Shown here piece after piece: positions 2,782 through 19,117 of a stretch of DNA of 64,000 nt. The notes under the pieces are model-generated. The model saw nothing but the letters and a program-made list of their open reading frames with translations. It was not told the origin of the DNA and did not search any database. The stretch covers positions 620,001 to 684,000 of the forward strand of contig NZ_JAAOTJ010000002.1 in NCBI RefSeq assembly GCF_011297335.1, given 5' to 3'. Each line of letters starts with the position of its first letter. The stretch's first letter is position 1. The DNA is from Catellatospora methionotrophica (lineage in GTDB: Bacteria; Actinomycetota; Actinomycetes; Mycobacteriales; Micromonosporaceae). A program made the position numbers and the translations under genes.

Positions 2782-3330
2782 TCAGTAGACGTTGAAGCGC
2801 TGGTTCCAGGTGCCCTGGCAGGTGAATACCTGCAGCCGCGCCCCGTTGCCGTACTGGCCGTTGAGCAGGTCGAGGCAGAGGTTCTTGTTGCGCATGTTGT
2901 GCAGCGGCCGCCAGCTCACGAAGTCGCCGCCGGAGACGTTCTCCGCGTACCACCGCTGGTTGGAGCCCCCGCTGCACGTCCAGGTCTGCACCCGGGTGCC
3001 GTTGCCCGGAGGGCCGTCGATGGCCATGTCGAGGCACTTGTCGGCGATGTTGCTGTGGAACTCGTACACGTCGTAGCCGTTGTAGTAACCGACGTGGTGG
3101 ATGGTCCAGTACTGCTGGGTCTTGTAGTTGCGCTCCCACAGCTGCACGGGGGTCCCGTTCGCCGGGTTGGCGTCCAGCACGTCCAGCACCATCCTGGACG
3201 GCCCCTGGGGCTGCGGCGTCACGCTGATGTACGTGTTGACCGCGGCGCTGGCGGGGGTGGGCATGGCGAACACGGCCGCCAGCGCGACGAGGCAGGCTGC
3301 GCCGACCTCAAGCATCCTTCTGGTACGCAT
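2782..3330 (-). CDS. secreted ricin-type beta-trefoil lectin-like protein
   Basis: The 182-aa product starts with MRTRRMLEVGA and a hydrophobic signal peptide ending near MPTPASA-A, so it is exported. The mature part is a beta-trefoil (RICIN/CBM13) fold with QxW-type repeats: QLWERN, NQRWYAEN and the C-terminal NQRFNVY, plus the KCLDMAIDG and NLCLDLLNG repeats. There is no catalytic domain, so it is a stand-alone carbohydrate-binding protein; its ligand cannot be read from sequence. Start chosen at the ATG with GGAG upstream; the frame extends 15 codons further. Divergent from the PGRP amidase, with a 239-bp shared intergenic region. Confidence 0.88.
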   Translation of the reverse strand: MRTRRMLEVGAACLVALAAVFAMPTPASAAVNTYISVTPQPQGPSRMVLDVLDANPANGTPVQLWERNYKTQQYWTIHHVGYYNGYDVYEFHSNIADKCLDMAIDGPPGNGTRVQTWTCSGGSNQRWYAENVSGGDFVSWRPLHNMRNKNLCLDLLNGQYGNGARLQVFTCQGTWNQRFNVY

Positions 3331-3470
3331 CTGCTGCACTCCATCTCGTGTCGGGGCGGTGCGGGCCTTGGGCACCGCGGCACGACGTCATCCTCAGGCG
3401 GCCCGCCGGGCGGCTGCCACACCTTGTAGGCGAGCCTGAAACCTGGCGCTGAGCAGGAGCGGGAGCATCT

Positions 3471-3488
3471 TTTCAGCCTCGACTGAAA
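3471..3488. promoter_or_regulatory. inverted repeat TTTCAG-N6-CTGAAA between lectin and amidase genes
   Basis: Perfect 6-base arms (TTTCAG and CTGAAA) with a 6-base spacer in the 239-bp divergent intergenic region 3331-3569; a further CTGAAA half-site lies at about 3436. Placement suggests an operator, but the regulator is unknown. Nothing else recognisable is seen in this gap. Confidence 0.35.
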
Positions 3489-3569
3489 GGTATTGCCGCG
3501 GCGGCTGCCCAGTCACGACGATCGCTGCGGAGGACTCGGCCGGGTGCCGGGTCGGCAGGATGCGGAGGA

Positions 3570-4724
3570 GTGGCTGTGCGAAGCGATGGCGGCGATGTCG
3601 AGGCGGTCGGCGACGGGGTGGGCAGGCGCGCGCTGATCGGTGCGCTGGGGGTGGGCGCGGCCACGGTCCTCGCCGGAGCCCACCCGGCCACGGCGGCCGA
3701 CCCCGGCCCGCGTCCCGCAGGCGGCGGTCGACCGGTCACCAGGACCCTGGCCACGCCCGGTACGGACGGGACGGCGCGGCCAGGGTTCGCGGTGCAGACC
3801 GTCGGCGTGCGATGGCCCGCGCACGGCCGGGCCGGGCGGCTGCGCTTCGCCGACCGGCAGGGCCGCTGGGGCACCTGGCAGACGGTGACGCCGGGCTGCC
3901 CCGCAGGCGCGGGTGACACCGGCCCGGCGACCGAGCAGCTGGCCCTGGTCACGGCACCGGGCGCACCGGCGTACGAACTGGACCTGGCCGACAGTGCCCG
4001 CGCGGTCGCCCTGAACGGCACGGACGGTCCTGCTCTGGCCGCCGCGTCGGCGGGCACCGACGGACGGACCTCGCTGTTCGGGCGGACGTATCTGAGCCGC
4101 GCGGCCTGGGGCGCCGACGAGTCGCTGCGCTTCGGCGCGGGCGGGGCCGAGATCACCCCGTGTTCGTACTGGCCGGTGCAGGGGTTCACCGTGCACCACA
4201 CGGCGACGGCCAACGACGACCCCGACCCGGTCGCGCGGATGCGTTCCATCTACCGGTACCAGGCCGTCGACCTCGGCTACGGCGACTTCGGCTACCACCT
4301 GCTCATCGACGAGGCGGGCACGGTGTACGAGGGGCGGTGGTCCGGCGGTGACGTGCTGCCCGGCTTCGACCCGGCCGGGTGGATGGTCAACGGCGCGCAC
4401 GTGGGCGGTTACAACGCGGGCAACGTGGGCGTCGTGCTGCTGGGCAACTTCATGCAGCGCGAACCCACGGCCGCCGCCCGGCACAGCCTGGTCCTGGTCC
4501 TGGCCGGGCTGGCGGGCTGGTCCCGGATCAACCCGCTGGCCAGCGTCGGCTACGTCAACCCGATCAGCGGACTGCGCCGGACCGTGCCCGCCATCGCCGG
4601 GCACCGGGACTGGGGCGCGACCGAATGCCCGGGAGACCTGCTGGCGGGCTGGCTGACCGGCATCCGCACGGATGTCGCCGCCGTGCTGTCGGCCACGGAC
4701 CGCCGGGCGGCCTTCGCCGGGTGA
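3570..4724 (+). CDS. Tat-exported peptidoglycan-recognition N-acetylmuramoyl-L-alanine amidase
   Basis: The 384-aa protein starts at a GTG directly after GCGGAGGA. A twin-arginine signal (GRRALIGALGVGAAT...) spans roughly residues 18-45. A linker/beta domain follows, then a PGRP/amidase_2 domain from about residue 170. The zinc ligands are visible: HHTA at 209-210, GHRDW at 344-348 (H345) and ECPGD with C353. FGYHLLIDEAGTVYEGRW is the typical central strand. The family cleaves the amide between N-acetylmuramic acid and L-Ala in peptidoglycan, here outside the membrane. Likely role: cell wall turnover or lysis of competitors. Complete and apparently monocistronic. Confidence 0.92.
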   Translation: MAVRSDGGDVEAVGDGVGRRALIGALGVGAATVLAGAHPATAADPGPRPAGGGRPVTRTLATPGTDGTARPGFAVQTVGVRWPAHGRAGRLRFADRQGRWGTWQTVTPGCPAGAGDTGPATEQLALVTAPGAPAYELDLADSARAVALNGTDGPALAAASAGTDGRTSLFGRTYLSRAAWGADESLRFGAGGAEITPCSYWPVQGFTVHHTATANDDPDPVARMRSIYRYQAVDLGYGDFGYHLLIDEAGTVYEGRWSGGDVLPGFDPAGWMVNGAHVGGYNAGNVGVVLLGNFMQREPTAAARHSLVLVLAGLAGWSRINPLASVGYVNPISGLRRTVPAIAGHRDWGATECPGDLLAGWLTGIRTDVAAVLSATDRRAAFAG

Positions 4725-5913: not shown

Positions 5914-8900
5914 TCACCTGGTGGACAGTTCGGCCAGCAGCCCGCGTACCCGCGCGGTGTCGGCGTGGCGCAGCCCGTCCAGGATGTCGCGGGCCTGCTG
6001 CCAGGCGGCGCGGGCAGCAGCACCGTCACCGGCCGCGCGGTGCGTGTCGCCCAGCCGGGTCAGGGACTCGGCCTCGTGGTAGCGGCTGCCGTTCTCCCGG
6101 AACAGCGCGACCGCCCGCTCGTAGCAGGCCACGGCGCGGGCGTGATCCCCCAGCCGGTGGTGGACGTAACCGAGGCTGTCCCAGGTGTGGGCCGCCTCGG
6201 TGGGGTCGGCGAGCCCGCCTAGCACCGCCAGCGCCCGGCGGCAGTAGCGCAGGGCGAGGCGGTGCCGGCCCAGCATGGCGTAGCCCCAGCCGATGTCGTT
6301 GAGCGCCTGACCGTAGCCGTTGGCGTTGCCCGCGAGGCGGTAGTGGGTCAGCGCCTGCTGGTTGTGGTGCAGGGCGCGGCCGTGCTCGCCCTGGCGCGAA
6401 TGGCTCAGCGCGATCGCGTTGTGCGCCCTTGCCAGGCCGCCGTGGTCGCCGGAGCGGGTGAACAGGGCCAGCGCGCGCCGCAGGTGCGGGCGCATCCGAG
6501 CCCCCCGGCCGAGCGCGGAGTATGCGCGGGCCAGGTTCAGGTGCGTGTGGCCCTCCCCGGTGCGCTCGCCGAGCCGGCGCGCTGCCCGGACCGCGCTGCG
6601 CTGGGCGGCGACCAGGTCGTGCCAGTGACCGCGGGCGTACAGGAACGTCGACACGCTGTGCGCCAGCTGCCAGCAGTGGCTGTCCCAGCCGCCGGCCTCG
6701 GCCCGGCGTATGGCCGCGAGCAGGGTGCCGCGTTCGGCGGCGAACCAGGCCAGCGCCTGTTCACGGGTGGCCAGCGGCGGCGGGGTCACCCCGGGCGTCG
6801 CGGGGGCGGTCGTGAGCTGCTCGCGCGCCGGTTCCAGCAGCGTGGCGGCGGTGCGCGCGGTCGCGAGGTGGTGGTCGAGCAGCCGGTGCAGCGCCTGCCG
6901 CCGTGCCGTCGTGGCGTCGAGGGCGCGGCTCAGCTCGGCGGCGTAGGCGCGCAGCAGGCTGTGCAGGTGGTACCGGCCCGGCGTGGACTCGGTGACCAGG
7001 TTGGCGTCGGTGAGCTCTTCGAGGACGCGGTGGGCGGCGGGGGTGGCGGCCCCGGTGAGGCTGGCGGTGACGTCGGCGGTGACGCTGCCGGTCGCGGTGT
7101 GTCCGATCAGCCGGAACGCGGTAGCGGCCGCCGGGCTCAGCGTGCGGTAGGACCAGGAGAACGCGGCGCGCGCGTCGGTGGCCGCGTCGGGGCCGCTGAG
7201 CCCGTCCAGGTTCCGGGTGGCCAGCTCGTGCGTGATCGCGGACAGCGCGAGCCGGGGCCGGGTCGCGGCGCGGGCCCCGACGATCGCCAGTGCCAGCGGC
7301 AGCCGGGCACAGCGCGCGATGATCTCCTCGACGGCGGCGGGCTCGGCCGCGGTGCGCTGGGCGCCGATCCGCGCGGCCAGCAGCCGCCGGGCGTCGTGCG
7401 GGGACGGCAGGTCGAGGGTGAGCAGGCGGGCGTTGCTGGTCGCCAGCAGGCCGCGTAGCTGGTCGCGGCTGGTCACCAGCACGGCGCAGCCGGGGCTGCC
7501 GGGTAGCAGCGGCCGGACCTGCTCGGCGTCGCGGGCGTTGTCGAGCAGGATGAGGACCCGCCGCCCGGCCAGCAGGCTGCGGTAGAGCCCGAGTTGCGCC
7601 TGCGGGGAGACGGGTATGCCGTCCGGTGGCACGTCCAGCGCCTCCAGTAGCGACCGGGCCGCCTCGGCGGGGACCATCGCCGGGCCGCCCGGATCGAATC
7701 CGCGCAGGTCCAGGTACAGCTGCCCGTCGGGGAACCGGTGGGCCACCCGGTGCGCCCAGTGCACCGCGACGGCGGTCTTGCCGCAGCCCGGCGTGCCGGT
7801 CAGCGCCGCGACGACCAGCGACCGGGGCGGGTCCCCGGCGTCGGCCAGGCCGGCGTCGAGCCAGCGCAGCTCCCGGCCGCGTCCGCTGAAGCCGGGCACG
7901 TCCAGGGGCAGCTGCGCGGGCACCGCCGGGGCGCGGGGCCGTTCGGCCTCGGCGGGCCGCGCCCGCAGGATGTCGAGGTACGCCTCATGCAGGGCGGCGT
8001 CGGGTTCGATGCCCAGCTCGTCGGCGAGCCGGGCCCGGGTCGCGGCGAACAGGTCCAGGGCGGCGGCGCGCTGCCCGCTGGCCGCCAGGGCCCGCATGAG
8101 CCGGGCGGCCAGCGCCTCGTGCAGCGGCTCCTCGGCCAGCAGTTCCTGCAGACGCTCGCAGGCCGGGTCGGGACGGCCCCGCTCGATCGCGGTGTCGGCA
8201 TAGGTGAGCACGGCGGCGGTGCGGCGGCGTGCCGCGGCCGCGGCGGCGGGGTGCTGGCGCAGGTTCGGGGGCGCGTCGGCCAGCACGGGACCGCGCCAGC
8301 AGGCCAGGGCCTGTTCCAGCTCCCGCAGCGCCGTCTCGGCGTCACCGCCGGTGCGGGCGTCGCGGGCGCGGGCGAGCCGGTCGTTGAACTGCGCGAGGTC
8401 GAGTTGTTCGCCGGTCAGCCGCAGCTGGTAGCCGTTGCCGACCAGGGACAGCACCTGCGCCGGCGCGCGCGGAGTGCGCTGCGGTTCCAGGATGGACCGC
8501 AGCTGCCCGACGTAGCCCTGCAGCAGTTTGAGGCAGGTCGGCGGCGGGTTCTCGGGCCACAGCACATCGACGATGTGCTCGCGGGACACCGTCTGTCCGG
8601 GCTGCAGGGCGAGCAGGCCGAGCAGGGCGCGCAGCATCGGCTGGCCGATCTCGATCGGGTGCCCGTCGCGGTGGACGGTCAGGGAGCCGAGCACACCGAC
8701 GGTCAGCGGTGGCCGGTGTGCCGGTGTGGCGTCGGGCGGTCCGAACACGGCGGTCAGTGCCCGCATGGTGCGCGGATGCGGATGGCGTACCTGGCCGCGT
8801 TCGATGTCGCGCAGGGCGCGTTCGGCCAGTCCGGACCGGACCGCCAGTTCGTGCTGGGTCAGGCCGGCCGCCCGGCGGCATCGGCGCAGCCACTCGCCGA

Positions 8901-8916
8901 GCTGTTCACCGTCCAT
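5914..8916 (-). CDS. AfsR/SARP-type regulator with N-terminal XRE helix-turn-helix, NB-ARC and TPR domains
   Basis: A 1000-aa STAND-type regulator. Order: XRE-type HTH (residues ~6-60, GLTQHELAVRSGLAERALRDIERG), OmpR-like winged helix (~70-150, FGPPD linker then LTVGVLGSLTVHRDG), bacterial transcriptional activation domain (~160-300, ELGIEPDAALHEAYL), NB-ARC NTPase with P-loop GTPGCGKTA near residue 380 and LLLDNA-type Walker B (ILLDNARD), then TPR repeats through the C-terminal ~300 residues. The known family activates secondary-metabolite or developmental genes after ATP-driven oligomerisation. The XRE domain ahead of the SARP module gives two DNA-binding domains in one chain. Divergent from a short SARP gene; no biosynthetic cluster is adjacent, so the target is unknown. 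Confidence 0.92.
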   Translation of the reverse strand: MDGEQLGEWLRRCRRAAGLTQHELAVRSGLAERALRDIERGQVRHPHPRTMRALTAVFGPPDATPAHRPPLTVGVLGSLTVHRDGHPIEIGQPMLRALLGLLALQPGQTVSREHIVDVLWPENPPPTCLKLLQGYVGQLRSILEPQRTPRAPAQVLSLVGNGYQLRLTGEQLDLAQFNDRLARARDARTGGDAETALRELEQALACWRGPVLADAPPNLRQHPAAAAAARRRTAAVLTYADTAIERGRPDPACERLQELLAEEPLHEALAARLMRALAASGQRAAALDLFAATRARLADELGIEPDAALHEAYLDILRARPAEAERPRAPAVPAQLPLDVPGFSGRGRELRWLDAGLADAGDPPRSLVVAALTGTPGCGKTAVAVHWAHRVAHRFPDGQLYLDLRGFDPGGPAMVPAEAARSLLEALDVPPDGIPVSPQAQLGLYRSLLAGRRVLILLDNARDAEQVRPLLPGSPGCAVLVTSRDQLRGLLATSNARLLTLDLPSPHDARRLLAARIGAQRTAAEPAAVEEIIARCARLPLALAIVGARAATRPRLALSAITHELATRNLDGLSGPDAATDARAAFSWSYRTLSPAAATAFRLIGHTATGSVTADVTASLTGAATPAAHRVLEELTDANLVTESTPGRYHLHSLLRAYAAELSRALDATTARRQALHRLLDHHLATARTAATLLEPAREQLTTAPATPGVTPPPLATREQALAWFAAERGTLLAAIRRAEAGGWDSHCWQLAHSVSTFLYARGHWHDLVAAQRSAVRAARRLGERTGEGHTHLNLARAYSALGRGARMRPHLRRALALFTRSGDHGGLARAHNAIALSHSRQGEHGRALHHNQQALTHYRLAGNANGYGQALNDIGWGYAMLGRHRLALRYCRRALAVLGGLADPTEAAHTWDSLGYVHHRLGDHARAVACYERAVALFRENGSRYHEAESLTRLGDTHRAAGDGAAARAAWQQARDILDGLRHADTARVRGLLAELSTR

Positions 8917-9305: not shown

Positions 9306-10124
9306 ATGAGGGATTCGGGGATGGGGACCGTGATGGAGATCCGGATGTTGGGGCCGCTGGAGGTCCTGGCGGGTGGACGGGGTGTGGCGTTCGGGGGAGT
9401 GCGCCAGCAGCAGATCATGGCGATGCTGCTGGCGCACAGCGACCGCTGGGTGGGGGTGTCGCGGCTGGTCGACTGCCTGTGGCCGGACGATCCGCCCGCG
9501 ACGGCCGACCGGCAGGTGCGCAACTGCGCCGCGTCGCTGCGCCGGACCCTGGTCGAGGCGGGGCTCGCGCCTGCCGACCTGGCCGTGGGCTCGGGGGGTT
9601 ATCTGCTGCGTACGGTCGGGTGCGAGGTGGACCGGCAGCGGTTCGAGTCGCTGGTGGCGGCCGCCCGCCGGGACCGCGACGCCGGTGATCTGCCCGCGGC
9701 GGCCGCCGGTTTCCGGGCCGCCGACCGGTTGTGGCGCGGACCTGCGCTGGCGGGCCTGGCCGAAGGCGCCCTGGCCGCCGAGGCGCTGCGCCTGGAGGAG
9801 TGGCGGTTGCAGGCCGTGGAGGACCGGGTGGCCGTCGAACTCGATCTGGGGCTGCACCGGGTGCTGGTGCCCGAACTGCTGTCACTGGCCGACGCGCATC
9901 CCGGCCGGGACCGGCTGCAGTGTGCCCTGATGGTGGCACTGTGCCGGGCCGGTAGCGCCGCCGGCGCCCTGCACGCCTTCGACCGGGTCCGCTCGCGGCT
10001 GAGCGTGGAACTGGGCGTGCCACCTGGTAGCGCCCTGCAGCGGGCCCGAAGGGCGATCCTCGCCGGGGTCCCGTTCGGGCTCGACGACCTGCTCCCGTCG
10101 GCACTGGCCGCGTACGCCCGCTGA
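9306..10124 (+). CDS. small SARP-family transcriptional regulator (winged helix plus BTAD)
   Basis: Up to 272 aa. MEIRMLGPLEVLAGG begins an OmpR-type winged helix (to ~residue 105), followed by a bacterial transcriptional activation domain (DRQRFESLVAAARRDRDAGD... VELGVPPGSALQ). This is the standard SARP layout without NTPase or TPR parts. Starts at 9306, 9321 and 9333 are all possible; 9333 gives the canonical SARP N-terminus and 9321 has GAGGG at good spacing. The family activates antibiotic gene clusters, but no cluster is seen next to it. Expression is divergent from the 1000-aa AfsR-type gene, so cross-regulation through the shared 389 bp is plausible. Confidence 0.88.
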   Translation: MRDSGMGTVMEIRMLGPLEVLAGGRGVAFGGVRQQQIMAMLLAHSDRWVGVSRLVDCLWPDDPPATADRQVRNCAASLRRTLVEAGLAPADLAVGSGGYLLRTVGCEVDRQRFESLVAAARRDRDAGDLPAAAAGFRAADRLWRGPALAGLAEGALAAEALRLEEWRLQAVEDRVAVELDLGLHRVLVPELLSLADAHPGRDRLQCALMVALCRAGSAAGALHAFDRVRSRLSVELGVPPGSALQRARRAILAGVPFGLDDLLPSALAAYAR

Positions 10125-10179: not shown

Positions 10180-13100
10180 TCAGCAGACGTAGAACGTCTT
10201 CGGTGGGCTGAACAGCAGCGGGATGGTCAGGTACGGCTGCCCGTGGGTCTTCAGGGTGCCCTGGGTCGGCTCGTACGTGCCGGAGGTCATCTGGCACTTG
10301 GTGTACATCGCGCCCAGCATCGTGCCCTCGGCCCGGTTCTCCGCGGTCGGGACCAGGCGCAGGCGGGTGCTGTTCGTCGACGTCTCACCGTAGAACATGT
10401 CCCACACGCCTCCCCGCTCGCTGGAGTAGAACGGGTACTCGTCGCACTGGTACCCGGTGGGGCGCGGGGTCGGGCAGGTGGTCTGCCCGACGCCGACCAG
10501 GTTCATCCAGCTGCGGCTGAGCACCGCCTCCTTCTGCGCGCCGCTCACGTACCTGTTGAGCAGCCACTGCGGGTTGCCGATGATGGCGTCGTCGTCGTTG
10601 ATCGCCGCCCCGTTGGCGTCGGTGGCGGTGGGGAACAGGATCGGCACGCTCATGCAGGGATCGCCGGTCAGGCCGGACCGTGCCGCCAGGTTCAGGCAGC
10701 GCAGGGCCGCCTCGTCGGCCTGCGCCTGGGTGATCTGCCACCCGTCGGACGAACGGCTGGCGACATAGTTGAAGATCCGCTGGGACACCATGGCGCGGTG
10801 GCTGTAGCCCTGCAGTGCGCTGTTGGCCAGGTCGGCGTAGGCGCGGTAGCCGGCGACGGTCGGGTGGAAGCTGCCGGCGCCGGGGGTGGCGCTGCCGCTG
10901 CCCGTCGTCGACGTGGCGGTGAGCGCGTTGAGCCACGAGTTGGGGGTCGCCGGGCAGGCGGCGTGGCTGTTCTGGCCGACGCCCACGAGCCAGGTGGTGT
11001 TCGGCTCGACGAACCGGATGTTCGCGCCCTCGTCCTTCACCTCCTGGACGGCCTTGGCGATGGTGGTGGTCAGCAGTCCGGCCAGGCTGTTGAGGAAACT
11101 CTGCGTCTGCGGCCCGAGGTTGTAGCAGCCCTCGGACGGGAGGTTGGGGAACATCTGCGGATAACCCATCACGAGGATCTTCGCGTTCGGGGCCTTGGCG
11201 CGGATCGCCCGGTAGACCGCCTTGAGGTGCTGGGGGAGCTGGTTGCGGATGAGGTTCGACTGGTAGTCCTTGAGCGGAGCGGGGTCGACGACGTCGGTGC
11301 CGTGGACGTCACGGGTGAGCCGGTAGTCGCTGTCGTAGCAGTTGCCCAGTGTCATGACGCAGCCGTTGAGCACGTCGCCGAACCGGGCGTCGTTGCCGCC
11401 GATGGACACGGTGACCAGCGTGGTGTCGACGTCGAGGTAGCCCTGGTCCACCTGGGCGACCTCGCCGAAGTGCTGGTCGGCCGCGCCCCAGCTCGTGCTG
11501 CCGCGCAGGTCGTCGGCTGTCGGCGGGTTGTTGACCGCGTCCCGGGTCAGGCTGACGGTCATCGCGCCCGAGCAGGCGATGAACCCGAACGAGGCTTTGC
11601 CCTCGGCGGCCTCCTGCGCGATCGGTGCGGCGTGTCCCGGCAGGGTGACCTTGCGCGGGTAGGCGTCGTCGCGGGAGCGGTGGCAGGCGTTCTTGTCCTC
11701 GCCGTCGCTGACCGTGTGCAGGTAGTCGCTGTTGCGGTCGTACGGCGCGGCACCCTCACCGGAGGAGTACGAGTCGCCCATCGCCACGTAGATCGCCGAC
11801 GGTGCCTGCGTCGGCACGAACGCGACCGCGTCGAAGATGATCGCGTCCTCGCCGCGCCCGTCGGAGGTCTCCGTGCTCAGCGACACGCTGGGCTTGCCGT
11901 TGACCGGGAACACGCCCAGGTCGATCCAGCGGTGCTCGCGCCAGGCCTGGTTGACGACCCGGTACCTGGTCTGGCCGTTGCCGAGGTTGACGACGTACTT
12001 GGCCTGGCGGGTCCACGCCCCGTGGTCGGGGACCGACACCATGATCCGGGTCCAGCCGTTGATGGCCTGCGACGCGGACCAGGTGCCGGTCACCTTCAGC
12101 GAGCCGCCGTTGGCGCCCTGGACGCGGGTGTACGCCCGCCACAGGTGCCCGCCGAACCCTGCCCCCACCTGGTGGAAATCGATCTTCGACGGACGGTTGC
12201 CCGCCGAGTCGCCGGCGAAGTCCAGCGCGAACGTGCCCGCGTTGGTGAAGTTGCGGGGGCAGCCGGTCCGCACCGAGCGGATGTCGTCGGCGACGTCGTC
12301 GACGATGCGCGCGCCCGCGGGCAGCCCGGTCAGGTCGCACCGGGGCGGGAAGCTGGTGCCGTCGTCCTGGTAGGCGTAACCGGGGTCGAAGCGCAGCACC
12401 TCGTTGCCGCACCGCGAGCAGGACGCGCCGGGATCGGTCTGCCAGCCCACGGGCCGGTTGAACCAGCACTTCAGGTCGTACCAGCCGGCGTCGTCGATGT
12501 GACCGCACGGGCCCGCGGGCTCGCCGACGACGTCCTCCTCGTTCGGCGGGAACAGCGCGCCGGGCACGCAGTCGTTGGTGGCGTCGCAGAACTTCGTCAG
12601 CGGCGGCTTGACCGACGCCCGTGCCTCGGCGGTGGTCCACCAGGCGGCCCGGTAACCGGCGACCGTGGTCTCCGGCGTCTCGCTGGCCTCGATCGGATGC
12701 CCCGCCCAGCCCATGATCTTCTCCGGGTACGGCCACCACTGCGGGTTGCGGGCGTCGTCGTAGCTGACCTCCAGGAACGCCTTGCGCTGCGGGTTGAACC
12801 GGGGGTTGATCGGGTTGTTGCCCCAGCCGACACCCCACGCCCCGTTGTTGGCCGCGGCCTCACTCTGCGGGTGGTAGCCGCTGTTGTACGCCCACACGGC
12901 GAAGAACCAGTTCTCCAGCGCCGCCGGGTTGCCGTCGTGGATCATCAGCCCGCCCTGCCGCGTCTGGTTCCACTTGTCCTGCAGGATGCGCAGGCCGGCC
13001 GCGATGTTAGTGGCGAAGTCCAGCGCCACGGCCCGCTGCGTCTGGTACGTCCACGCGGTGTCGTCGGGGCCCTTCTCGTGACCGGCGAGTCGCATGTGGT

Positions 13101-14820
13101 CGGTGACCTGCGTGAGCCCGTACCCGCAGTCGGACTTGGTCCAGTTGATGGCCCAGTCGTCGTCGGGGTTGGCGTTGTAGATCTCGCGGCCGTAGAAGTT
13201 GCCGATCAGCGGGTTCGCGGTGACGCCCGGCAGGGCGAACCGCGACGCCTGCCACATGTTCGACTCCTGGGCGATGATGCCGAGCATGATCTGCGCCGGG
13301 ACCCGCCCGCCGCCGATCAGCGGGATGCTGGGGAACAGACCCTGCGGGGTGTACGCCGGCATGCCGAGGTTCTTCCAGTCGGCGGGCCGGGCCAGGTGCA
13401 GCGAGTTCGTGATCGCCTGGTCCACCGCCCATTCGACCTGGCGCGGCTTGGGCTGCATGGCCTGGTTGCGCGGGTCGTTGCGGGGCACCGAGCAGTAGCG
13501 CTCGGCGTCGACGGGGTTGTCGGCCGAACTCGTCGTCGTGGCCGTCTTGAGGCGCAGCCCGGCACCGGCCGGAGCCGCGCCGAGCAGCAGCGGGTTCACG
13601 GCCGTGCCCGCCGCGGCGTTCGCGCCGCTGACGTGCGGGCCGACGCGGAAGTCCAGCCGCGCACCGCCTGCCAGCACCTTCGCCTGCACGGTGACGGTAC
13701 GCGCACCGGCCTGCGGGTCGACGGCCAGCCGCGGGTCGACGCCGGCGGCCACGCTCACACGGGTCAGGGCGAGCGCTCCGGTGGAGGACGGCTCGCTGCC
13801 CACCGGCACGTCCAGCACGCGGACACTGCCGGGCAGCGCCGCCACCCGGGTCGGCCGTCCGGTCACGAACGCCTTGCCGTTCGCGCCACGGGTCAGGCCC
13901 AGTTCGGTCAGGTCGCCCTCGGCCAGCAGCGCCGCCGGGGCGGCCGTGGCGGTCGAGGTGTGCCGCACCCGGACCTTCACGCCGTCGTGCTCGGCGAACG
14001 TCACCTGCCCGGAACCGTCGGGCACGAGCCGGAACGCCACGCCGGTGGTCGGCGCGAGCGGCTTGGTCGTGCCGTCGGTGCCGACACGGACCAGCCTGCC
14101 GGGACCTGCGGCGACGATGCCGTCGCTGGTCGGCACGGCCGAGGTGACCTCGGTGCGCAGGCCGATCGGCGTGGACAGTTTGCCGGTCGCGGAGTCCACG
14201 GTGAACAGGCGGCTGCGGATGGCGGTGGGGGCCGGGTCGTCGGCGCGGTCGCCGCCGAACTGGCTGATGACCGCGGTCTCCCCGGCTCCGCAGCCGGGGT
14301 TGAAGTACGCCAGGGAGCTCTGCACGCTGAGCTTGCGGACCGCGCCGGTCTGCAGGTCCACCACGGCGGTGAAGGCGCCCCGGTCGAACAGGTCGGCCTT
14401 GTTGGTGAACGTGCGCGGCGCGTACGCCACGACCAGCCGCCGGCCGGAGCCGGTCAGGCAGGCGTTGCCGATCCACATGTCGGTGTCGAAGCCCGGCTCG
14501 GCCAGCGTCGCCGCCGTCTGCCAGGTGTACCCGCTGCGGGCCGTGGCCACCAGCACGTGCAGGCCGGTCGCGTCACCGGAGGTCGTCCACGCCGTGTCGG
14601 CCGAGGTCCGCCAGCCCTTGGGCAGGACCGTGTCGCGGCGTTCGGCGGCGACGCTGTTGGTCACGCCGCCGACGGTCGTGACCGTGGCCGGGTCCCCGGG
14701 GGGCGGCCCGGCGCCCTCGGGTGCGGCCTGGGCGCCTAACACGCCCATCGACAGGAGCAGTGCCACCGCCCCTGTCGCGGCGACGATCCTCGCCGCTGTC
14801 CGTACTACTGGAAACCTCAC
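10180..14820 (-). CDS. giant secreted enzyme: lytic transglycosylase-like, golvesin-like, SGNH hydrolase and NucA/NucB nuclease domains
   Basis: A 1546-aa protein from a GTG with GGGAGGA upstream. It has a signal peptide (RFPVVRTAARIV... ending MGVLGAQA). Residues ~45-440 look like beta-propeller-type repeats. A lysozyme-like/SLT domain centres on AQESNMWQ (Glu at 519), with GYGLTQVTDHM and WAYNSGYHP. A golvesin/Xly-type domain lies at ~890-1005. An SGNH/GDSL hydrolase follows: GDSYSSGEG (Ser 1017), IGGNDARF (~1143) and SFHPTVAGY (His 1319). The last ~90 residues contain CDEYPFYSSERGG (Glu 1461), the signature of NucA/NucB deoxyribonucleases. Expected activity outside the cell: peptidoglycan cleavage, ester hydrolysis and DNA degradation. 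The frame continues 51 codons upstream, but without a better start. Confidence 0.88.
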   Translation of the reverse strand: MRFPVVRTAARIVAATGAVALLLSMGVLGAQAAPEGAGPPPGDPATVTTVGGVTNSVAAERRDTVLPKGWRTSADTAWTTSGDATGLHVLVATARSGYTWQTAATLAEPGFDTDMWIGNACLTGSGRRLVVAYAPRTFTNKADLFDRGAFTAVVDLQTGAVRKLSVQSSLAYFNPGCGAGETAVISQFGGDRADDPAPTAIRSRLFTVDSATGKLSTPIGLRTEVTSAVPTSDGIVAAGPGRLVRVGTDGTTKPLAPTTGVAFRLVPDGSGQVTFAEHDGVKVRVRHTSTATAAPAALLAEGDLTELGLTRGANGKAFVTGRPTRVAALPGSVRVLDVPVGSEPSSTGALALTRVSVAAGVDPRLAVDPQAGARTVTVQAKVLAGGARLDFRVGPHVSGANAAAGTAVNPLLLGAAPAGAGLRLKTATTTSSADNPVDAERYCSVPRNDPRNQAMQPKPRQVEWAVDQAITNSLHLARPADWKNLGMPAYTPQGLFPSIPLIGGGRVPAQIMLGIIAQESNMWQASRFALPGVTANPLIGNFYGREIYNANPDDDWAINWTKSDCGYGLTQVTDHMRLAGHEKGPDDTAWTYQTQRAVALDFATNIAAGLRILQDKWNQTRQGGLMIHDGNPAALENWFFAVWAYNSGYHPQSEAAANNGAWGVGWGNNPINPRFNPQRKAFLEVSYDDARNPQWWPYPEKIMGWAGHPIEASETPETTVAGYRAAWWTTAEARASVKPPLTKFCDATNDCVPGALFPPNEEDVVGEPAGPCGHIDDAGWYDLKCWFNRPVGWQTDPGASCSRCGNEVLRFDPGYAYQDDGTSFPPRCDLTGLPAGARIVDDVADDIRSVRTGCPRNFTNAGTFALDFAGDSAGNRPSKIDFHQVGAGFGGHLWRAYTRVQGANGGSLKVTGTWSASQAINGWTRIMVSVPDHGAWTRQAKYVVNLGNGQTRYRVVNQAWREHRWIDLGVFPVNGKPSVSLSTETSDGRGEDAIIFDAVAFVPTQAPSAIYVAMGDSYSSGEGAAPYDRNSDYLHTVSDGEDKNACHRSRDDAYPRKVTLPGHAAPIAQEAAEGKASFGFIACSGAMTVSLTRDAVNNPPTADDLRGSTSWGAADQHFGEVAQVDQGYLDVDTTLVTVSIGGNDARFGDVLNGCVMTLGNCYDSDYRLTRDVHGTDVVDPAPLKDYQSNLIRNQLPQHLKAVYRAIRAKAPNAKILVMGYPQMFPNLPSEGCYNLGPQTQSFLNSLAGLLTTTIAKAVQEVKDEGANIRFVEPNTTWLVGVGQNSHAACPATPNSWLNALTATSTTGSGSATPGAGSFHPTVAGYRAYADLANSALQGYSHRAMVSQRIFNYVASRSSDGWQITQAQADEAALRCLNLAARSGLTGDPCMSVPILFPTATDANGAAINDDDAIIGNPQWLLNRYVSGAQKEAVLSRSWMNLVGVGQTTCPTPRPTGYQCDEYPFYSSERGGVWDMFYGETSTNSTRLRLVPTAENRAEGTMLGAMYTKCQMTSGTYEPTQGTLKTHGQPYLTIPLLFSPPKTFYVC

Positions 14821-15241: not shown

Positions 15242-19117
<3,876 letters not shown>

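What the first reader, a model, noticed from the sequence alone, without database searches (positions are those of the whole stretch)
10180..14820. Single secreted protein combining peptidoglycan, ester and DNA hydrolysis domains
Seen: signal peptide, SLT-like Glu 519, golvesin-like domain, SGNH Ser 1017/His 1319 and a NucA/NucB signature around residue 1460 in one 1546-aa chain. Established: each domain is individually known. Inference: a scavenging or anti-competitor enzyme that opens cell walls and digests released DNA. The order transglycosylase-golvesin-esterase-DNase is unusual.
Basis: partly seen in the sequence, partly recalled or inferred. Interest (0 to 1): 0.72.

Follow-up and report, generated by a model that had tools for sequence, protein, structure and literature searches.

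The report
Modular secreted toxin with swappable payload
A soil bacterium carries a large secreted protein made of a fixed front part, which likely binds and cuts other bacteria's cell walls, and a back part that relatives swap for different membrane- or DNA-destroying enzymes, as expected of a modular weapon against rival bacteria.

Summary
In detail: 10180-14820 (-) encodes a 1546-aa secreted protein with SLT-like, golvesin-like, SGNH and NucA/NucB domains and intact catalytic residues (SLT scores below Pfam's cut-off, but its core motifs are invariant in 174 of 174 headers). A constant header of about 1000 aa (signal peptide, propeller, SLT, golvesin) is joined, just after the golvesin domain, to different tails. 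In 176 sampled copies: SGNH 90, NucA/B 27, none 25, an unknown 440-aa domain 18, SGNH+NucA/B 8 (the window's type), endo/exonuclease/phosphatase 4, RHS 3, broken 1. Tails changed at least 19 times on the header tree. The next gene follows the tail: SUKH or DUF6461 genes near 24 of 26 distinct NucA/B-tailed and 0 of 90 SGNH-tailed genes; same-strand ORFs with a hydrophobic segment after 67 of 90 SGNH-tailed and 0 of 27 NucA/B-tailed genes. Best reading: a single-chain polymorphic-toxin-like system that brings its own wall-cutting enzyme. Against: the window copy has no recognised immunity gene next door, and nothing here tests toxicity.

The parts
10180..14820 (-). Gene for the 1546-aa secreted modular protein (P0001)
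   Evidence: Open frame, GGGAGG before GTG 14820, full-length relatives
14722..14820 (-). Sec-type signal peptide, residues 1-33
   Evidence: Read from the sequence: RTAAR, long hydrophobic stretch, AQA-AP; no predictor run
13636..14664 (-). N-terminal beta-propeller, residues about 53-395
   Evidence: AlphaFold block pLDDT mostly 80-90, weakest blocks about 43-62; Foldseek matches include Cdc20, TolB, Drp35 and other propellers, best E 9e-8
12841..13314 (-). SLT-type lytic transglycosylase-like domain, Glu519 with GYGxxQ and YNxG motifs
   Evidence: Pfam SLT 17.5 bits, below the cut-off of 21.3; SLT at E<=0.1 in 10 of 14 headers; motifs invariant in 174 of 174; model confidence here low, blocks about 26-59
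11815..12111 (-). Golvesin_C domain, residues 904-1002; last part of the constant header
   Evidence: Pfam PF25275 above cut-off; matched in 14 of 14 headers at E<=0.1
10813..11799 (-). SGNH lipase/phospholipase-like payload, residues 1008-1336, Ser1017 and His1319
   Evidence: Pfam above cut-off; tail-family profile to 4hyq phospholipase A1 1.8e-36, 5mal lipase 8.8e-33; Foldseek to 4hyq 1.8e-13; Ser and His 98 of 98
10276..10485 (-). NucA/NucB DNase payload, Pfam core residues 1446-1515, Asp1460-Glu1461, Asn1495
   Evidence: Pfam PF14040 above cut-off; catalytic residues 35 of 35 as in NucB (PMC5758888); not modelled with confidence
9306..10124 (+). Convergent gene at the place where a SUKH-like gene lies in relatives L040 and L235: BTAD-only regulator, not a recognised immunity gene
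   Evidence: Pfam BTAD 6.7e-36; 55 nt between the two genes; no match to the SUKH, DUF6461 or membrane-partner profiles in the window's ORFs of 50 aa or more

Best explanation
A single-chain, polymorphic-toxin-like antibacterial weapon. The chain is exported by Sec (inferred from the signal peptide). The constant header binds the target surface (beta-propeller and golvesin domain; inferred) and its SLT domain cuts peptidoglycan (inferred from invariant catalytic residues). The exchangeable C-terminal payload then attacks what lies beneath: here an SGNH phospholipase/lipase-like enzyme against the membrane and a NucA/NucB DNase against DNA. Relatives carry other payloads behind the same header and, next to the gene, payload-specific partners best read as immunity proteins: soluble SUKH or DUF6461 proteins for DNase tails, membrane-bound proteins or lipoproteins for SGNH tails and for the unknown G3 tail. 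Shown here: the architecture, intact catalytic residues, repeated tail exchange, and partner type following tail type. Inferred: target binding, entry, killing and protection. How the nuclease would cross the membrane is not known.
For: Header (about residues 55-1004) conserved, tails diverging right after the golvesin domain. Tail classes in 176 copies: SGNH 90, Nuc 27, none 25, G3 18, SGNH+Nuc 8, EEP 4, RHS 3, broken 1 (recounted). Header tree of 174 rows: at least 19 tail changes against a minimum of 6; starred branches alone force 5 for Nuc and 7 for G3. SUKH or DUF6461 in the 2.5 kb downstream of 24 of 26 distinct Nuc-tailed genes against 5 of 148 others, and 0 of 90 SGNH-tailed; over 5 independent pairs of rows that differ in the Nuc tail, the partner goes the same way in 4.8 on average and never the other way. 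The window's genome has 3 SUKH matches in 8.4 Mb. Same-strand ORF within 150 nt with a TM-like segment: SGNH 67 of 90, G3 13 of 18, Nuc 0 of 27. Three headers continue into 17-21 RHS repeats plus DUF6531. Catalytic residues invariant in the sets examined. 65 of 246 Streptomyces genomes have the header, with up to 5 matches each. The window's nearest header relatives on the tree, L235 and L040, have a convergent SUKH-like gene about 50 nt away (Pfam SUKH-1 at 2.5e-11 for L040).
Against: The window copy has no SUKH, DUF6461 or membrane-partner profile match in its 64 kb; its convergent neighbour is a BTAD regulator. Five of 8 window-type genes have instead a same-strand secreted ricin-lectin plus DUF2690-like protein of unknown role. 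25 of 176 copies have no payload. Partners beside SGNH tails are not one family: the four named profiles cover 30 of 90, and the TM count also takes signal peptides and has no background rate from unrelated loci; header-only copies score 7 of 25. All 16 SUKH genes beside Nuc tails and 6 of 9 DUF6461 genes are convergent, not co-directional as is usual for immunity genes (recalled); L136's lies about 1200 nt away; 4 of the 9 DUF6461 hits are weaker, 1e-7 to 1e-9. L035's SUKH neighbour and L235's (tested incomplete) are below Pfam's cut-off. The independent-pairs test cannot pass p=0.0625 with 5 pairs; the Fisher values ignore relatedness. The header tree is FastTree only. No toxicity, binding or enzyme data exist here.
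Confidence: 0.68

Rival explanations
1. One reading: a secreted multi-hydrolase that digests dead cells (wall, lipids, DNA) for nutrients, with the neighbouring genes incidental.
For: The enzyme domains are common in secreted bacterial hydrolases (recalled); the window copy lacks a recognised immunity neighbour; the gene on the other side encodes a ThuA/GSDH/CBM6/F5-8C protein; Bacillus NucB is a biofilm-degrading endonuclease (PMC5758888, title and passages).
Against: Tail exchange behind a fixed header, RHS tails, and SUKH/DUF6461 partners almost only beside nuclease tails are unexplained by scavenging.
Confidence: 0.17
2. Self-directed enzyme of development: wall remodelling or programmed lysis of the producer's own hyphae, with partners restricting it to the right cells.
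For: SLT header kept in filamentous actinomycetes; 25 of 176 copies are header only; AfsR/BTAD-type regulators flank the window gene.
Against: Patchy: 65 of 246 Streptomyces, 37 of 200 of the window's family, 10 of 246 of the class, the last two counting the window's own genome; paralogues with different tails in one genome, for example G115 with L074 (G3), L091 (SGNH) and L124 (Nuc). A core developmental function should be more constant.
Confidence: 0.08
3. Weapon or digestive protein aimed at fungi or protists rather than bacteria.
For: Lipase and propeller folds are not specific to bacterial targets (Foldseek matches come from bacteria and eukaryotes).
Against: The SLT motifs, invariant in 174 of 174 headers, point to peptidoglycan as substrate (recalled family knowledge); SUKH-type partners protect the producer's own kind.
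Confidence: 0.04

Closest known systems
Polymorphic toxin systems (Zhang et al. 2012, PMC3482391; passages read)
   Same: Constant export/trafficking part, exchangeable C-terminal toxin domains, adjacent immunity genes, RHS members, SUKH immunity with nuclease toxins (listed there).
   Different: Header of beta-propeller, SLT and golvesin with its own wall hydrolase: the passages I saw do not list it, and the part of the main text held has no 'transglycosylase'. Its Tox-NucA (HNH/EndoVII fold; GH,N,N,E) is probably not the PF14040 family (inference). SUKH genes here are convergent.
Streptomyces umbrella toxins (PMC11062931; passages read)
   Same: Secreted antibacterial polymorphic toxins of Streptomyces with beta-propeller lectins and immunity genes next door.
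   Different: Umbrella toxins are multi-protein particles on ALF repeats; here one chain carries the propeller, a wall enzyme and the payload.
SGNH phospholipase A1/lipase of Streptomyces (4hyq, 5mal; PMC10779480, passages read)
   Same: Ser and His conserved, no Asp seen at His-3, as in those Ser-His dyad enzymes; profile match 1.8e-36 and 8.8e-33.
   Different: Those are free enzymes; here the domain is a C-terminal payload of a large header.
Bacillus NucB (5OMT; PMC5758888, passages read)
   Same: Asp-Glu of the CDEYPF core and the catalytic Asn conserved.
   Different: NucB is a free 110-aa enzyme; here it is the end of a 1546-aa chain.

Membership tests
Polymorphic toxin system | Conserved N-terminal export/trafficking region | tested here: met
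   Signal peptide read from the sequence; header conserved in 14 sequences, mean column identity 56%
Polymorphic toxin system | C-terminal domains exchanged by recombination | tested here: met
   At least 19 tail changes on the header tree, minimum possible 6
Polymorphic toxin system | Immunity gene adjacent (family level) | tested here: inconclusive
   SUKH or DUF6461 near 24 of 26 Nuc-tailed and 2 of 8 SGNH+Nuc genes; protection itself not testable; SGNH tails have mixed membrane/lipoprotein neighbours
Polymorphic toxin system | Immunity gene adjacent (this window copy) | tested here: not met
   Of the eight partner profiles only BTAD matches in the window; a ricin lectin 6.8 kb away matches only the lectin part of the ricin-DUF2690 partner. 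So the window gene is filed as working like one, not as a proven member
Polymorphic toxin system | C-terminal domain is toxic | not testable with these tools
   Catalytic residues intact; needs expression
SLT lytic transglycosylase (PF01464) | Pfam curated cut-off | tested here: not met
   17.5 bits against 21.3; L004 20.5, the highest of the eight SLT scores printed, is also below
SLT lytic transglycosylase (PF01464) | Catalytic Glu-Ser and the GxxxQ and AYNxG motifs (motifs recalled) | tested here: met
   Glu519 174/174, Ser520 161/174, GYG and Gln571 174/174, YN and Gly648 174/174, Ala644 135/174
SGNH hydrolase, PLA1/lipase clade | Ser, Gly, Asn, His blocks | tested here: met
   Ser 98/98, Gly 95/98, Asn 97/98, His 98/98
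DNase NucA/NucB (PF14040) | Cut-off and Asp-Glu-Asn site | tested here: met
   36.1 bits against 23.8; 35/35. Among 26 Ig-linked Nuc tails only 11 match PF14040 at E<=0.01
Golvesin_C (PF25275) | Pfam curated cut-off | tested here: met
   34.1 against 31.6

The most novel reading that the evidence does not exclude
A second, single-chain class of actinobacterial polymorphic toxins, separate from umbrella particles, in which every weapon carries its own wall-opening enzyme: a general header (propeller, SLT, golvesin) that carries enzymes through the thick wall of rival actinomycetes, with at least five interchangeable payload types, among them an undescribed 440-aa toxin family (G3) with a two-helix membrane immunity protein. 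The window's version is a double warhead, membrane plus DNA.
Probability: 0.5. Interest if true: 0.85.

Novelty: new variant of a known kind. Interest (0 to 1): 0.7.

Why it matters
How large protein toxins get through the thick wall of Gram-positive rivals is an open problem. A conserved header with a built-in wall enzyme and exchangeable payloads would give a directly testable answer, add a weapon class to Streptomyces and relatives beyond small-molecule antibiotics and umbrella particles, and supply candidate toxin and immunity pairs (DUF6461, G3 with its two-helix protein).

Tried and rejected
Rejected: a unique fusion or assembly artefact (8 of 176 copies share the order). Rejected for the window: a partner of the profiled families anywhere in its ORFs of 50 aa or more; an unprofiled immunity gene cannot be excluded. 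The ricin lectin at 2785-3387 as partner: it matches only the lectin part, and the own genome has 11 matches to that partner protein, nearly all to its lectin part. Led nowhere: alignment queries to the genome search; PDB profiles for the header and Nuc tails (no match); Pfam, NCBIfam and PDB for G3 (nothing convincing); the structure model of the C-terminal half (mean pLDDT 47.5; Nuc part under 50, so only its SGNH part was used); the SLT part of the header model (low). Literature: no paper holds golvesin with polymorphic toxin; of the 10 golvesin papers I opened one, PMC9166713 (passages), which places golvesin in a carbohydrate-binding (CBM6-CBM35-CBM36-like) group; the other nine were seen as listings only and look unrelated. 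DUF6461 is in none. Searches gave the papers cited and others that I did not open, among them PMC13274773, PMC12419801, PMC13018210 and PMC12691689. Subscription papers and most preprints are not in that library, so 'not in print' is not claimed.

Rows left out before counts: of about 110 rows listed, 11 were not fetched (several fragments, and L036's own row). Of 61 rows, 49 were fetched, 6 were already held, 2 came in with neighbouring regions (L228, L231) and 4 were not fetched. Of 17 rows, 11 were fetched. The genome search scored only 5 or 6 candidates a genome, so matches per genome are lower bounds, and one gene can give two match rows (G148). In one search six overlapping frames were dropped (L085+, L125+, L129-, L167+, L170-, L172-); the second copies in L242 and L246; L143 (broken) and L086 (identical to L037). 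L037 and L086 both count in '27', once in '26'. L083's G3 tail is only 180 aa and was left out of A2.

Full report
What is there. The minus strand of 10180-14820 encodes one 1546-aa protein with a plausible start (GGGAGG before GTG 14820) and a Sec-type signal peptide read from the sequence. Pfam finds Golvesin_C, GDSL/SGNH and DNase_NucA_NucB above their cut-offs and SLT below its cut-off. SLT is a weak match in 10 of 14 headers scanned, the window's included, and its catalytic Glu519 and the GYGxxQ and YNxG motifs are invariant in 174 of 174, so I accept an SLT-like domain, although the structure model there has low confidence. The SGNH Ser and His are invariant in 98 of 98 tails, and the NucA/B Asp, Glu and Asn in 35 of 35, matching the NucB active site described in PMC5758888 (passages). 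What it missed is an N-terminal beta-propeller, residues about 53-395, with block pLDDT mostly 80-90 and Foldseek matches to Cdc20, TolB and other propellers (TM-scores are low, at most 0.22 by query and 0.51 by target in the 50 rows printed). Golvesin-type domains belong to a carbohydrate-binding group according to PMC9166713 (passages).

A constant header with exchangeable tails. Relatives from the genome search and genome contigs share the first 1000 residues at 40-59% identity over the header and diverge immediately after the golvesin domain. A wider survey found the SLT-golvesin part at E<=1e-30 in 65 of 246 Streptomyces genomes, 26 of them with more than one match row and up to 5 (only 5 candidates a genome were scored, and one gene can give two rows), in 37 of 200 genomes of the window's family, and at E<=1e-20 in 10 of 246 of the class; the last two counts include the window's own genome. 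I fetched 165 regions. Classified copies, 176 in all: SGNH only 90; Ig-like linker plus NucA/B 27; header only 25; an unknown 440-aa domain, here 'G3', 18; SGNH+NucA/B 8, the window's type; endo/exonuclease/phosphatase 4; RHS repeats 3; broken 1. 'Ig-like' is my description, not a profile match. For L007 the endo/exonuclease/phosphatase domain is above Pfam's cut-off; the other three were assigned with a profile built from L007 alone. Only 11 of 26 Ig-linked Nuc tails match PF14040 at E<=0.01, though the catalytic residues are there in every Nuc tail aligned. The three RHS tails have 17-21 RHS repeats and DUF6531.

Exchange is repeated. On a FastTree of 174 headers (638 columns) the tail label needs at least 19 changes, the least possible being 6 and the shuffled mean 78.8; starred branches alone force 12 for SGNH, 7 for G3 and 5 for Nuc. 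For example L078 (SGNH) sits beside L081 and L083 (G3) on a starred branch. The window groups with L040 and L235, both SGNH+Nuc (99, starred). FastTree joins long branches readily, and the tool flagged two such joins.

The neighbour follows the tail. Profiles made from downstream neighbours give SUKH or DUF6461 in the 2.5 kb after 25 of 27 Nuc-tailed genes (24 of 26 distinct; misses L122 and L127), against 5 of 148 others: L040 and L235, which also carry a NucA/B domain, L159 (G3), and L167 and L170, whose hits are the same genes that lie beside their Nuc-tailed convergent neighbours. SGNH-tailed: 0 of 90. The profiles were built from these same neighbours, so the count says that Nuc tails share two neighbour families, not that the families were found blindly. 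The 16 SUKH genes are all convergent and within about 200 nt except L136 (about 1200 nt); of the 9 DUF6461 genes 6 are convergent and 3 on the same strand. Pfam confirms SUKH-1 above its cut-off for L119 (5e-11) and L040 (2.5e-11) and DUF6461 for L036 and L090; L035 and L235 (the latter tested incomplete) are weak SUKH matches below it. Four DUF6461 hits (L125, L126, L129, L158) have E only about 1e-7 to 1e-9 with my profile. The window's genome has 3 SUKH matches in 8.4 Mb, so chance adjacency is unlikely. SGNH and G3 tails are followed instead, on the same strand within 150 nt, by ORFs with a TM-like segment: 67 of 90 and 13 of 18, against 0 of 27 Nuc, 7 of 25 header-only, 5 of 8 SGNH+Nuc, 1 of 4 EEP and 2 of 3 RHS (simple hydropathy that also counts signal peptides, no background rate from unrelated loci). 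They fall into several families: a protein with up to four helices in 11, a lipoprotein-like protein in 7, two one-helix families in 6 and 7 of 90 SGNH (30 of 90 in all), and a two-helix protein in 5 of 18 G3. Soluble partners for DNases and membrane-bound partners for enzymes that act at membranes is the pattern expected of immunity proteins. In independent comparisons the Nuc tail and its partner go together in 4.8 of 5 pairs on average and never the other way, which cannot pass p=0.0625; for SGNH and its four named membrane partners it is 5.5 of 12 the same way, about none the other way, 6.5 undecided. The Fisher values ignore relatedness.

The window copy itself. It has two payloads. The SGNH tail family matches Streptomyces phospholipase A1 (4hyq, 1.8e-36) and lipase (5mal, 8.8e-33) (Foldseek for this protein 1.8e-13), shows no Asp among the residues printed at His-3, and so resembles the Ser-His dyad enzymes of PMC10779480 (passages). 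I therefore prefer a lipase or phospholipase acting on membranes to an acetyl esterase. Its neighbourhood is the weak point: the convergent gene 55 nt downstream is a BTAD-only regulator, and of the partner profiles only BTAD matches in the window. Of the other seven window-type genes, two (L040, L235) have a convergent SUKH-like gene about 50 nt away and five (L003, L004, L230, L232, L233) a same-strand secreted protein with a ricin-type lectin and a DUF2690-like part (Pfam tested for L003's only: ricin lectin just above cut-off, DUF2690 below it), whose role I cannot tell. The window copy may be an orphan, be protected by an unlinked or unrecognised protein, or need no protection.

Mechanism and rivals. 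I commit to a single-chain, polymorphic-toxin-like weapon: export, surface binding by propeller and golvesin domain, wall cutting by SLT, then membrane and DNA attack by the payload. Only architecture, conservation, exchange and neighbourhood are shown; binding, entry, killing and protection are inferred. Scavenging (0.17) and developmental self-lysis (0.08) remain possible.

Known kinds. Polymorphic toxins in general (PMC3482391, passages) and Streptomyces umbrella toxins (PMC11062931, passages) are the nearest systems. [quoted passage not shown] umbrella toxins are multi-protein particles, and the word 'transglycosylase' occurs 0 times in that text. I found no paper on this header in the library searched, which lacks most subscription journals.

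Noticed in passing
L038, L074, L075, L079, L081-L083, L148, L150, L159, L162, L163, L227, L229, L234, L270, L274, L284 (tails): G3: an unknown payload of about 440 aa, with no convincing Pfam, NCBIfam or PDB relative (11 members scanned), followed by a 66-94-aa two-helix ORF in 5 of 18.
   Followed up: partly
L125/L170, L129/L167, L085/L172, L228, L231: Header-only copies lie on the same contig as payload-bearing copies, in the first three cases tail to tail; 25 of 176 copies have no payload.
   Followed up: no
window 5914-8916 (-) and 9306-10124 (+): An AfsR/SARP-type regulator with an extra N-terminal HTH, BTAD, NB-ARC and TPR, and a BTAD-only regulator beside the toxin gene; BTAD profile hits also lie downstream of 7 SGNH-tailed and 2 header-only copies.
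   Followed up: partly
window 15242-19117 (+): Divergent neighbour: 1291-aa secreted-looking protein with ThuA, GSDH, PKD, CBM6 and two F5/8-type C domains.
   Followed up: partly
window 2785-3387 (-): Small secreted-looking ricin-type lectin, distantly like the lectin part of the partner beside 5 of 8 window-type genes.
   Followed up: yes
window about 3453-4721 (+); L236 and L241 downstream ORFs: By eye only, the window ORF resembles ORFs next to two endo/exonuclease/phosphatase-tailed genes; it looks like a secreted peptidoglycan-recognition-type protein, not tested.
   Followed up: no
L040:7896-12673: In Paractinoplanes rishiriensis the SGNH+Nuc gene is split over two frames; only described.
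   Followed up: no
L168, L169, L171: Same header followed by RHS repeats and DUF6531, open frames of 2294-2338 aa; small ORFs follow L169 and L171 that could be immunity genes, judged by eye.
   Followed up: partly
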